Positions 17,852 through 27,735 of a stretch of DNA of 34,310 nucleotides are shown here, in pieces; the first letter of the stretch is position 1, and each line of letters begins with the position of its first letter. The position numbers were made by a program, and so were the translations under genes. Under the pieces are notes generated by a model. The model saw only the letters and a list, made by a program, of their open reading frames with translations, did no database searches and was not told the origin of the DNA. Source of the DNA: Chloroflexota bacterium. GTDB lineage: Bacteria; Chloroflexota; Limnocylindria; P2-11E. The stretch spans positions 1-34,310 of the forward strand of contig VBJD01000045.1 of the NCBI GenBank assembly GCA_005887995.1, given 5' to 3'.

Positions 17852-19174
17852 ATGCCCGCACGCACCACAGCACCGCTCCCCATGACCGCGCGCGATGCGC
17901 GGCGCCTCGCGATCACGTCCCAGCGTCTCGTCTCTGGCCCTCCGGCGACTCGACGCGGCGTGATGGAGCTGATGCGCGATATCGGCTACCTGCAGCTCGA
18001 TCCGACGAACGTCGTCGCGCGCAATCCGCTCCTCGTGCTGTGGAGCCGGCTTGGCACGTACGACGCGGCGATCCTCGAGTCACTGCTCGCCAAGCGCGAG
18101 CTTTTCGAGACGCCGTCGCTCATCCTTCCGACCACGGACCTGCCCATCCACGCGGCGACGATGCGCGCCTATCGCCGCGCGACGGATCCGCGACCGGCGA
18201 GAGACCTGCGCGGCCGGGGCGACAACGCCGGCGGCGGCACGCGCGCGGAACGCGTGCAGCGCTGGCTCACGCAAAACCGTCACGTGCGCAGCGAGGTCTT
18301 GGCAAGGCTGCGCCGTGAGGGGCCGCTCCCGCTCACCGCGTTCGAGGACCGCGCCATCGTGAGCTGGACGTCCGGCGGCTGGAACGACGAGCGCAACGTG
18401 ACGATGCTCATGGCGATCCTGCAACGGCGCGGCGAGATCATCGTCGCGGGCCGCCGCCGCGGCCAGAAGCAGTGGGGCATTCCCGAGGACTGGCTCAAGG
18501 CCGCGCGGCCGTTGTCGGGTCTTGCGCTCGAACGCGAGGCGACGCTGCGCGCGATCCGCTCTATCGGTATCGCGACCCTCAAGCAGCTGAAGTGGCACTA
18601 CGCGTTCTCTCGCCACGTCAGCCAGCGTGCACTGGATTCGCTCGAGCGCGACGGCGCGATCGCGCGCGCCGAAATCACGGACGCGAAGTGGAAGGGCACG
18701 CACTACGCGCTGACTGACCGACGAAAGCATGAGTGGGAAGAACGCACAACGCTGCTCTCGCCGTTCGACAACCTCATCATCGATCGCGAGCGCACCCTCG
18801 AGCAGTTCGGCTACTTCTACCGCATGGAGATCTACGTCCCGCCGCACCTGCGGAAGCTCGGCTACTGGGCGATGCCGGTGCTCCACGGCGATCGCATCGT
18901 CGGGAGCGCCGACCCGCGCTTCGAACGCGCGGAAGGCGTGCTCGTCGTCAACCGTCTCGTCCTTCAGCCCGACGCGCCGCGGAGCGTCATGCGCGCCATC
19001 GAGCGCGCCGTGGACGAGCTCGCCGAGTTCGTCGGCGCGAAGTCCGTCCGCTGGGCGCGGCGCGTGCCCGTCCGCACGGCGCCTCGCCGCTTCGCCGCGG
19101 GGCTTCGCGCCACGCCGCCAACGACCCGGCGCTCCGCGGCGCGGAACCGGCGCGAGGGCACGAGCGTCTCATGA
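17852..19174 (+). CDS. Winged-helix DNA glycosylase, AlkX/YcaQ-like (HTH_42)
   Basis: 440 residues from ATG 17852 (ATG 17882 also possible). The N-terminal motif GYLQLDPTNVVARNPLLVL includes Gln48-Leu49-Asp50, the Q-hydrophobic-D catalytic motif that separates AlkX/YcaQ enzymes from the QPhiQ AlkZ branch. Tandem winged-helix domains follow, and the C-terminal barrel shows LLSPFDNLIIDRERTLEQF and GSADPRFERAEG, both hallmarks of the family. E. coli YcaQ removes alkylated bases and unhooks interstrand cross-links; similar repair is expected here. The last 40 residues are a basic, Arg/Ala-rich tail. The stop overlaps the start of the next gene as ATGA, indicating coupled translation. Confidence 0.9.
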   Translation: MPARTTAPLPMTARDARRLAITSQRLVSGPPATRRGVMELMRDIGYLQLDPTNVVARNPLLVLWSRLGTYDAAILESLLAKRELFETPSLILPTTDLPIHAATMRAYRRATDPRPARDLRGRGDNAGGGTRAERVQRWLTQNRHVRSEVLARLRREGPLPLTAFEDRAIVSWTSGGWNDERNVTMLMAILQRRGEIIVAGRRRGQKQWGIPEDWLKAARPLSGLALEREATLRAIRSIGIATLKQLKWHYAFSRHVSQRALDSLERDGAIARAEITDAKWKGTHYALTDRRKHEWEERTTLLSPFDNLIIDRERTLEQFGYFYRMEIYVPPHLRKLGYWAMPVLHGDRIVGSADPRFERAEGVLVVNRLVLQPDAPRSVMRAIERAVDELAEFVGAKSVRWARRVPVRTAPRRFAAGLRATPPTTRRSAARNRREGTSVS

Positions 19175-25468: not shown

Positions 25469-26428
25469 CTAGCCCGCGCGCTTCGAGCGGGGCTTACGTG
25501 CGGTCGCGGTGCGCTGTTTCGCGGCCTCGACGCTCGCTTTGAGCTTTGCCATGAGATCGGCGATCGGCATGGGCGCTTCGGCCTCAGGCGCGCGCTCGGT
25601 CGCGGGCTTCGCGCGTAGGAGCTCGAGCAGACCTTCACGGTATTCGTCCGCGTGCTTCTCGGGCACCCATTCGGTCGCGAGCGTTCCGATCAGCTGTTGC
25701 GCCATCTTCAGCTCGCGGTCGGAGACGCTGATCTGCGGTACGCGCGCTATCTCTTCAGGGTTTCGCACCTCATCGCCGAAGTAGAGCGTCTCGAGGCCAA
25801 GCACCTTCTCGAGCGGACGGATCGCGACGAGGTGAGGCTTCGTGCGAAGCACGAAGCGACCGATGCCGACCATCCCGGCCGCTTGCATGGCGCGCAGCAA
25901 CAGCGCGTACGGTTTCTCCGCGCCCGAACTCCACTGCGGCGCGACGTAGTAGCTCTTTTCGAAGAAGACAGGATCGATCTCCGCGAGATCGACGAACTCC
26001 TCGATGTCGATCGTGCGGCTGCGCTCCGGCAGGAGCGACGCGAGCTCTTCCTCTTCGACGGTCACCAGCTCGCCGCTCGGGAGCTCAACGCCGCGCACGA
26101 CGTCGCCTGCCTCGATCGTGCGCGCGGCCGCGATGGTCTCGTCACGCGAATCCTCGTGAGGAACCGGCTCCGGCGCTCGCAGGTCCTCACGCGCTTCGCG
26201 CTCCTCGCGCGGCGCTGGCGCGTACGTCGGCGGTGCGACGATCGGGACCTCGGAAGCGAACGACGGAGGCTCGTATTCGCGCGTCACTCGCTCGTACCGG
26301 ACGCGCTTGCCGGTGCGCCGGTCATAGAGATGGAAGCGCACGTCCTTCGGGTCCGTCGCCGGATAGAGCTTCACCGGAATGCTCACCAGACCGAAGTTGA
26401 TGCTTCCGCTCCAGACTGCCTGCCGCAT
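25469..26428 (-). CDS. ku: Ku protein (bacterial NHEJ), with internal insertion
   Basis: 319 residues from ATG 26428, with the strong ribosome site GGGAGGACGT; a frame start 5 codons earlier is less likely. The Ku core is plain: MRQAVWSGSINFGLVSIPV, then EIDPVFFEKSYYVAP, MVGIGRFVLRTKPHLVAIRP and LETLYFGDEVRNPEEI. The C-terminal basic tail (KQRTATARKPRSKRAG) is the usual DNA-contact extension. It forms a homodimer ring on DNA ends and recruits LigD. Between residues about 57 and 105 an E/P-rich stretch replaces the short CxxC segment of typical bacterial Ku. No ligD lies in this window. Confidence 0.95.
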   Translation of the reverse strand: MRQAVWSGSINFGLVSIPVKLYPATDPKDVRFHLYDRRTGKRVRYERVTREYEPPSFASEVPIVAPPTYAPAPREEREAREDLRAPEPVPHEDSRDETIAAARTIEAGDVVRGVELPSGELVTVEEEELASLLPERSRTIDIEEFVDLAEIDPVFFEKSYYVAPQWSSGAEKPYALLLRAMQAAGMVGIGRFVLRTKPHLVAIRPLEKVLGLETLYFGDEVRNPEEIARVPQISVSDRELKMAQQLIGTLATEWVPEKHADEYREGLLELLRAKPATERAPEAEAPMPIADLMAKLKASVEAAKQRTATARKPRSKRAG

Positions 26429-26464
26429 ACGTCCTCCCGGCATGAAACTCTAAGCCGACTGCTC

Positions 26465-27283
26465 TCAGGGCTCCGTCTCGAAGTCCCACTCCGCGGTCAT
26501 GTCCGTGCCCGAGAGCCGGAGCTCGAATCGGACGTGATAGCGAGACCCGCGCACAAGTGGCTGCGCTGGGACGATCGCGGCGTAGTCGCCCTCGTAGAGC
26601 TGGGGAACGACGTGATACGTGATCTCGCGCCCGGCCCCGTCCGTGAGTCGCGCGGATCGCAGCTCCAACGCGTTCGCGTGCGAGGCAACGAGCATCACTG
26701 GATATCCCACCGGACGCACTGCGCCAAAAGGAAGCACGTCGGGGGACTCGTCCCCATCCCATGAGGCCTGAACGCGCTGACCGCCCGCGGGTGAGCGCAC
26801 CAGATCGGGCGCTGACGAGCTGAAGTCGTAGACGATCACGCCCACCGTCGCGGATCTGGCGCCGGATTCGGCGTGGCCCCACCCCGCAACGATCGCGTGC
26901 GGATGCATGAGGCCAAGACGGTGATACGGCAAGATCCACAGCGACCGCACGCCGTCGGTGCCACTCCCGAAAGATGTCGCGACCTCGCTCGCCGTCGCGT
27001 CGGTGTACCCCTGCGCAGCCAACCGATCTCTGACAGTTGCGCCGGTGAAGCCGTCAGCGCCCGGGGTCTCGTCATGGCCTATCGCGCCGTTGCGTGCGAG
27101 GTACTCGGCATGCCGCTTCGCGGCGGTCGTCACGCGATCGTCGCCGCGGACCGCGGGGACCGAGATCGCGACACGAAGCTCGTTGTGGACGCGGAGCATC
27201 TCATCGGCTGAGTTGGATCCTGACGCGGGAGGCGCGGTCGATGGCTGCGCGGTCGATGGCAGCGCTGCTGCCGACCGCGGCAT
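26465..27283 (-). CDS. CAP (SCP/PR1) domain protein, probably N-terminally truncated
   Basis: 272 residues from ATG 27283; the frame upstream ends at a stop within 16 bases. A Pro/Ser/Thr-rich linker (residues 1-27) leads into a CAP-like domain: MLRVHNELRVAISVPAV, AAKRHAEYLARNGAIGHDE and a later YHRLGLMHPHAIVAGWG. These domains are normally exported, yet there is no signal peptide; a linker-first start like this suggests that the signal region was removed. The lost part would lie where the VgrG-like remnant now begins (27319). A C-terminal domain (about 180-272, ending in the TAEWDFETEP strand) is of a type I do not recognise. Function unknown. Confidence 0.7.
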   Translation of the reverse strand: MPRSAAALPSTAQPSTAPPASGSNSADEMLRVHNELRVAISVPAVRGDDRVTTAAKRHAEYLARNGAIGHDETPGADGFTGATVRDRLAAQGYTDATASEVATSFGSGTDGVRSLWILPYHRLGLMHPHAIVAGWGHAESGARSATVGVIVYDFSSSAPDLVRSPAGGQRVQASWDGDESPDVLPFGAVRPVGYPVMLVASHANALELRSARLTDGAGREITYHVVPQLYEGDYAAIVPAQPLVRGSRYHVRFELRLSGTDMTAEWDFETEP

Positions 27284-27318
27284 GCAGTCTTTGTGTCACG
27301 TGCCGTGCCGCGTCTCCG

Positions 27319-27486
27319 CGGATCCGCGTCGTGCAGCTGTTCTCAGGTTCGGGGCAGGGAACGTTCTGGATCCCAGACAAGGACGACGAGGTGCTCGTCG
27401 CGTTCGAGCACGGCGATCCGGATCGGCCGTACATCGTGGGCAGCCTGTTCAACCCGCGGCGCCCACCGCCCCGGACCGCGAACTGA
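27319..27486 (+). pseudogene. VgrG/gpV-type spike or baseplate gene remnant (C-terminal end)
   Basis: About 55 codons read RIRVVQLFSGSGQGTFWIPD, then DEVLVAFEHGDPDRPYIVGS and LFN before TGA at 27484-27486. The pattern GDEVLVAFEHGD-x-x-RPYVLG-x-L is the signature of the OB-fold of VgrG/gp5 spike proteins of contractile injection systems (T6SS, eCIS, phage tails). Everything upstream of the OB-fold is missing, and the frame leads into sequence antisense to the CAP gene. The final A of the stop codon is also the 3' terminal base of the tRNA-Thr gene on the other strand. It cannot be functional alone. Confidence 0.75.
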
Positions 27487-27558
27487 GCCGACGGGCAGAC
27501 TCGAACTGCCGACCGGCGGTTTACGAAACCGCTGCTCTACCGGCTGAGCTACGTCGGC
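27486..27558 (-). tRNA. tRNA-Thr (anticodon CGT)
   Basis: Read on the minus strand, it folds into a full cloverleaf: acceptor GCCGACG/CGTCGGC, D-arm GCTC/GAGC, anticodon stem GCGGT/ACCGC with loop TTCGTAA (anticodon CGT, decoding ACG), five-base variable loop, and T-arm GGCAG/CTGCC with loop TTCGAGT. Discriminator T; CCA is not encoded. ACG is a common Thr codon in this GC-rich DNA. Confidence 0.97.
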
Positions 27559-27626
27559 TAGGAGGGACATCCGGCGAGCTTGCCCGCCGAGGGTCCCGAC
27601 GACGCCGACAAGGCGCGAAGCGCCTA
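27558..27626. repeat. Structured 69-base repeat, copy B
   Basis: Second copy of the element at 6652-6720, of identical length and shared block order. Its outer stem is GGGA/TCCC where copy A has CCCT/AGGG; both pair. The inner stem is CGGCG/CGCCG around a GAGCTTGC core. A second hairpin here is stronger than in copy A: AGGCGC, loop GAA, GCGCCT, flanked by GCCGAC/GTCGGC just beyond the element. It abuts the 5' end of the tRNA-Thr gene and lies upstream of the amidohydrolase gene, so it is not simply a terminator between convergent genes. Confidence 0.75.
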
Positions 27627-27735
27627 CGTCGGCCCGCACTGGAGATTTTCGCATGTTCTGAACGTCCGCGCTGCGGCCCGGGACAAGGGCGGGGACGTCA
27701 GCAGTGATCGCCATGCGCGCGTACTCTCTCGGCTC

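What the first reader, a model, noticed from the sequence alone, without database searches (positions are those of the whole stretch)
27284..27558. Contractile-injection spike remnant ends exactly on the 3' end of tRNA-Thr(CGT)
A 55-codon C-terminal piece of a VgrG/gpV-type gene has its stop codon sharing a base with the tRNA 3' end, and the CAP gene on its other side lacks the signal peptide expected for its family. tRNA 3' ends are common integration sites. Inference: a larger phage-tail-like or eCIS island once lay here and was lost by a deletion that also trimmed the CAP gene. The full system might survive at another locus.
Basis: partly seen in the sequence, partly recalled or inferred. 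Interest (0 to 1): 0.6.

Follow-up and report, generated by a model that had tools for sequence, protein, structure and literature searches.

The report
Rearrangement scar beside a tRNA-Thr gene
A 55-codon leftover from the middle of an injection-spike gene is wedged between a tRNA gene that mobile elements of this bacterial family use as a landing site and a neighbouring gene that lost its start; it is a real but ordinary genome-rearrangement scar, not a working injection system.

Summary
Window 27319-27483 (+) encodes 55 residues of a VgrG/gpV-type spike OB domain (PF04717 positions 33-75, E 8e-14) with a normal coding signature. It is an internal piece: 29 homologs all run on for 88-197 more residues. 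Its stop codon is supplied by the tRNA-Thr(CGT) 3' end, sharing one base by Rfam's boundary. The adjacent CAP gene is truncated: all nine relatives aligned have an N-terminal membrane anchor that it lacks.

In this family the tRNA is a mobile-element site: its 3' half is duplicated in five relatives, with a tyrosine integrase near four sites. CAP and the tRNA are linked 15-29 kb apart, same orientation, in three relatives, and about 200 bp apart here. But no relative has an injection cluster at this tRNA. None of 27 other family genomes has a spike (PF04717) or sheath (PF04984) match, and neither does the rest of this genome. Spikes occur in a sister family (at most 55% identical in this segment), with no tRNA-Thr found near 21 of them. 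This genome has no duplicated tRNA end. Most likely an acquired element's spike fragment was left by illegitimate recombination. Assembly error is not excluded.

The parts
27319..27483 (+). 55-codon internal fragment of a VgrG/gpV-type spike gene (second half of the OB domain plus linker)
   Evidence: PF04717 positions 33-75, E 8e-14; aligns to residues 409-460 of solved VgrG 7q5p; homologs continue 88-197 aa further
27484..27486 (+). stop codon TGA ending the fragment, supplied by the tRNA end and its trailer rather than by the spike gene
   Evidence: sequence; the motif CTGAGCC is also found at the tRNA 3' end in most relatives whose flanks otherwise differ
27485..27558 (-). tRNA-Thr(CGT), intact; 3' end faces the fragment
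   Evidence: ARAGORN; Rfam RF00005 at 27486-27558, 68 bits
26465..27283 (-). CAP-domain gene without its N-terminal membrane anchor
   Evidence: PF00188 E 9e-8; alignment with nine relatives
27250..27319 (.). junction 1, CAP/spike, located only to this interval
   Evidence: CAP linker to the left, spike homology from about 27319 to the right
27480..27486 (.). junction 2, spike/tRNA 3' end; coincides with the edge of the tRNA block that is duplicated in relatives
27559..27655 (-). structured leader of the tRNA: hairpins, a 10-bp repeat of the tRNA 5' end (CTACGTCGGC) and a promoter-like motif shared with two genomes of the same genus

Best explanation
A non-functional rearrangement scar at a mobile-element landing site. 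In this lineage only, DNA carrying a CIS- or phage-tail-type spike gene became joined to the 3' end of tRNA-Thr(CGT). A further breakage removed most of that DNA together with the 5' end of the CAP gene, leaving 55 internal codons of the spike between the two. Shown: both truncations, the position of both junctions (junction 1 to within about 70 bp), the hotspot status of the tRNA in the family, and the uniqueness of the arrangement among the genomes searched. Inferred: that the spike DNA arrived on an element recombining at the tRNA end, and the order of events.
For: Fragment truncated at both ends. The spike/tRNA junction lies at the same edge (27483-27485) where identity begins in the tRNA 3'-half copies of relatives G001, G003, G006, G022 and G027. 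Tyrosine-integrase matches lie within 3 kb of four such sites: G006:C84 (two), G001:C3 and G001:C30. CAP anchor lost in this genome only. CAP-tRNA linkage at 15-29 kb in G004, G018 and G026, about 200 bp here. Fragment still has coding composition and no internal stop, so the event is probably recent. No relative in the family has a spike or sheath, so the piece is not residue of a family-wide system.
Against: No displaced tRNA 3' end in this genome (up to 2 mismatches, 87% complete). No integrase match in the window; the one in the genome is on another contig. An integrative element would not normally have the middle of a gene abutting its att site, so at least one illegitimate join or a cryptic att inside the spike gene is needed. 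A gene of the ancestral CAP-tRNA interval survives on contig C13, so more than one rearrangement is required.
Confidence: 0.55

Rival explanations
1. One reading: a resident eCIS or phage-tail island at this tRNA was lost by one large deletion that also trimmed CAP.
For: CAP trimmed; CAP and tRNA linked at 15-29 kb in relatives; eCIS-type spike with a sheath gene on the same contig exists in a sister family.
Against: No spike or sheath in 27 family genomes; the CAP-tRNA interval of relatives holds ordinary-looking genes; no tRNA-Thr found near 21 sister-family spike loci; spike gene cut on the tRNA side too; interval gene survives elsewhere.
Confidence: 0.15
2. Filler DNA: an unrelated spike-gene piece was captured during end joining of a double-strand break between CAP and the tRNA; Ku-type end joining may be available in the cell.
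For: Ku gene next to CAP and a second Ku match in the genome; no evident homology at the ends of the fragment beyond the tRNA edge; gene order around CAP and Ku is heavily shuffled between relatives.
Against: Does not explain why one join lies exactly at the tRNA 3' end, the edge of the block duplicated in relatives. Ku occurs in all ten family genomes tested, so its neighbourhood may be chance.
Confidence: 0.2
3. Assembly chimera: the tRNA is identical in many genomes and could have caused a false join in a metagenome assembly.
For: Draft of 231 contigs; the tRNA is 100% identical over 74 bp in many relatives; the arrangement is seen in one genome only.
Against: Two separate joins within 200 bp would be needed, one of them (CAP/spike) not at an evident repeat. 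CAP (about 70% identical to G002 and G004) and the tRNA leader (shared with G002 and G004) both match the genome's own genus; codon usage of the fragment fits.
Confidence: 0.1

Closest known systems
Phage_base_V / gp5-VgrG OB domain (PF04717), as in eCIS spikes (NCBIfam VgrG_rel NF033848), phage gpV and T6SS VgrG
   Same: Second half of the OB domain with its conserved motif (DDEVLVAFEHGDPDRPYIVGSLFN).
   Different: About 55 of roughly 600 residues; lacks the N-terminal spike body, the first part of the OB domain and the C-terminal needle. Scores are intermediate (vgr_GE 54, VgrG_rel 50, TssI 45 bits), closest in pattern to the split gpV of a Streptomyces plasmid cluster (61/55/57), so the exact source type is unresolved.
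tRNA-associated genomic islands mapped by displaced tRNA fragments (Islander, PMC4383910)
   Same: tRNA gene that has duplicated 3' halves and nearby tyrosine integrases in relatives.
   Different: In this genome neither the displaced fragment nor an integrase was found at the site.

Membership tests
VgrG / gpV spike protein (PF04717) | OB domain | tested here: met
   Positions 33-75 of 75, E 8e-14; partial domain only
VgrG / gpV spike protein (PF04717) | Complete gene with N-terminal spike body (Phage_GPD PF05954) and C-terminal needle | tested here: not met
   PF05954 absent from the genome; both ends missing compared with 29 homologs
Contractile injection system cluster (eCIS or T6SS) | Sheath gene in the same genome | tested here: not met
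   No PF04984 match in this genome or in the 27 other family genomes; assembly 87% complete; other core genes (tube, baseplate) were not searched
tRNA-integrated genomic island | Target tRNA with displaced duplicate of its 3' part in the same genome | tested here: not met
   One copy only in this genome; several copies in G001, G003, G006 and G022
tRNA-integrated genomic island | Integrase gene at the site | tested here: not met
   The one PF00589 match in this genome is on contig C165, none in the window. Integrases lie within 3 kb of four sites in G001 and G006

The most novel reading that the evidence does not exclude
A mobile element with a contractile, phage-tail-type spike integrates at tRNA-Thr(CGT) in this family but has not yet been sampled intact; this fragment would be its only trace.
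Probability: 0.15. Interest if true: 0.35.

Novelty: new member of a known kind. Interest (0 to 1): 0.15.

Why it matters
Mostly as a caution: a short spike-domain match beside a tRNA is not evidence of an injection system in this organism or its family. Its modest positive value is that it marks tRNA-Thr(CGT) as a site of repeated recombination in this family and shows how an anchored CAP protein can lose its membrane anchor.

Tried and rejected
A complete spike elsewhere in the genome: none. A duplicated tRNA 3' end in this genome: none. A close donor of the fragment: best matches are about 52-56% identical in phylum genomes and 53-54% in plasmid spikes, at most 48% in phage records; one genome-contig hit with 65% over 26 residues only; none in IMG/VR by the pattern scan; no closer one among 177 same-class genomes. 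T6SS origin specifically: disfavoured, since a true T6SS VgrG segment scores 95 bits with the TssI model against 45 for the fragment. tRNA genes near sister-family spike loci: no tRNA-Thr; two oversized tRNA-Arg/Pro predictions are probably false. A CAP/spike junction defined by microhomology: only a 10-bp repeat, 27268-27277 and 27506-27515, at a place that does not fit the joins. A short functional gene: the only in-frame ATG found lies antisense within CAP and shows no ribosome-binding site by eye.

Full report
Check of the observation. The window is contig C93 of a 3.02 Mb draft genome (231 contigs, 87% complete). At 27319-27483 on the + strand lie 55 open codons that match Phage_base_V (PF04717) from position 33 to its end with E 8e-14, and solved VgrG spikes at residues about 406-460. 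Codon-position GC (0.69/0.47/0.87) and synonymous codon use are those of the neighbouring genes, and those of the other frames are not; this was coding sequence. tRNA-Thr(CGT) on the minus strand ends at 27485 (ARAGORN) or 27486 (Rfam); the stop TGA is 27484-27486.

Correction. The fragment is not the C-terminus. In 29 homologs fetched from the phylum, 88 to 197 residues follow the matched segment. The spike gene is therefore cut on both sides, and the stop codon is provided by the tRNA end: the motif CTGAGCC is also present at this position in most relatives, whose flanks are otherwise unrelated.

CAP gene. Nine relatives of the same family carry an ortholog, 64-71% identical, with a hydrophobic N-terminal anchor and a Pro/Ala/Ser/Thr-rich linker; the window's copy starts in the linker and has a stop codon five codons upstream. 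The loss of the anchor is confirmed.

The site in relatives. In G004 (same genus) CAP and this tRNA lie on one contig 28.5 kb apart, in G018 and G026 (another genus) about 15-16 kb apart, always in the window's relative orientation; the genes between look by eye like transporters, kinases and enzymes, not tail genes. In three same-genus genomes the CAP neighbours are conserved (kinase-like genes and the gene family called c2). In this genome c2 lies at the very end of contig C13 with different neighbours, and Ku beside CAP is unique to this genome among those compared. So the surroundings were rearranged more than once, and one clean deletion between CAP and tRNA does not account for everything.

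The tRNA as a landing site. Copies of its 3' half (37-49 bp, from the anticodon loop to the 3' end) occur in G001, G003, G006, G022 and G027; 5'-half copies occur in G002, G018 and G027. A tyrosine integrase (PF00589) directly precedes one 3'-half copy in G006:C84 (integrase to 7017, copy at 7108 in L087), and integrase matches lie within 3 kb of three further sites (the second copy on G006:C84, G001:C3, and the full tRNA on G001:C30). By my estimate from integrase density, about 0.3 such pairs would be expected by chance in those two genomes. Regenerated tRNA plus displaced fragment is the pattern by which tRNA-integrated islands are mapped (PMC4383910, abstract). In the window's genome no second copy was found.

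No injection system here. PF05954 is absent from the genome and PF04717 occurs only as this fragment. The 27 other genomes of the family have neither PF04717 nor PF04984, and none of them matches the fragment. Within the class, 23 genomes of a sister family match it, at 41-55% identity, mostly in full-length genes; in four of them (G029, G039, G045, G055) spike and sheath lie 6-7 kb apart on one contig, as expected for contractile clusters. ARAGORN finds no tRNA-Thr in 3-20 kb stretches around 21 of these loci. The fragment's NCBIfam scores are intermediate between eCIS-type and other spikes and clearly not those of a T6SS TssI, so its source can only be called CIS- or phage-tail-type.

Conclusion. 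The best account is a recent, non-functional scar: spike-bearing DNA joined to the tRNA end, most of it then lost together with the CAP start. Recombination at the tRNA end is suggested by the coincidence of the junction with the edge of the duplicated block and by the hotspot status; the join inside a gene shows that at least one step was illegitimate. End-joining capture of a stray fragment and an assembly join remain possible. The finding is real but ordinary.

Noticed in passing
window 27559-27655 (-); L023:13971-14070 (G004); L028:3174-3275 (G002): The tRNA-Thr leader holds about 70 bp with strong hairpins, bounded by a 10-bp repeat of the tRNA 5' end (CTACGTCGGC, 27549-27558 and 27624-27633) and a promoter-like motif TTCAGAACATGCGA; conserved in two genomes of the same genus.
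   Followed up: partly
L080, L081, L082, L083, L084, L085, L086, L087, L088, L090, L091, L093: Many tRNA-Thr 3'-half copies in family genomes, several followed by hairpins, and some with a motif like that beside the tRNA 5' end (TCAGAACGTGCGAGA) on the other side, so they might be transcribed or be a repeated mobile element; two copies in G006 share identical flanks.
   Followed up: partly
G000:C13:1-1456 (L099): Contig C13 begins inside the gene that lies two places upstream of CAP in three same-genus genomes, pointing to a rearrangement or contig break at that locus.
   Followed up: partly
window 18859-18939: ARAGORN calls an 81-nt tRNA-Ala inside the AlkZ-like gene 17852-19174; Rfam does not report it, so it is probably false.
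   Followed up: partly
window 25469-26443; G000:C194:3457-4260: Two Ku genes in this genome, and Ku matches in all ten family genomes tested.
   Followed up: no
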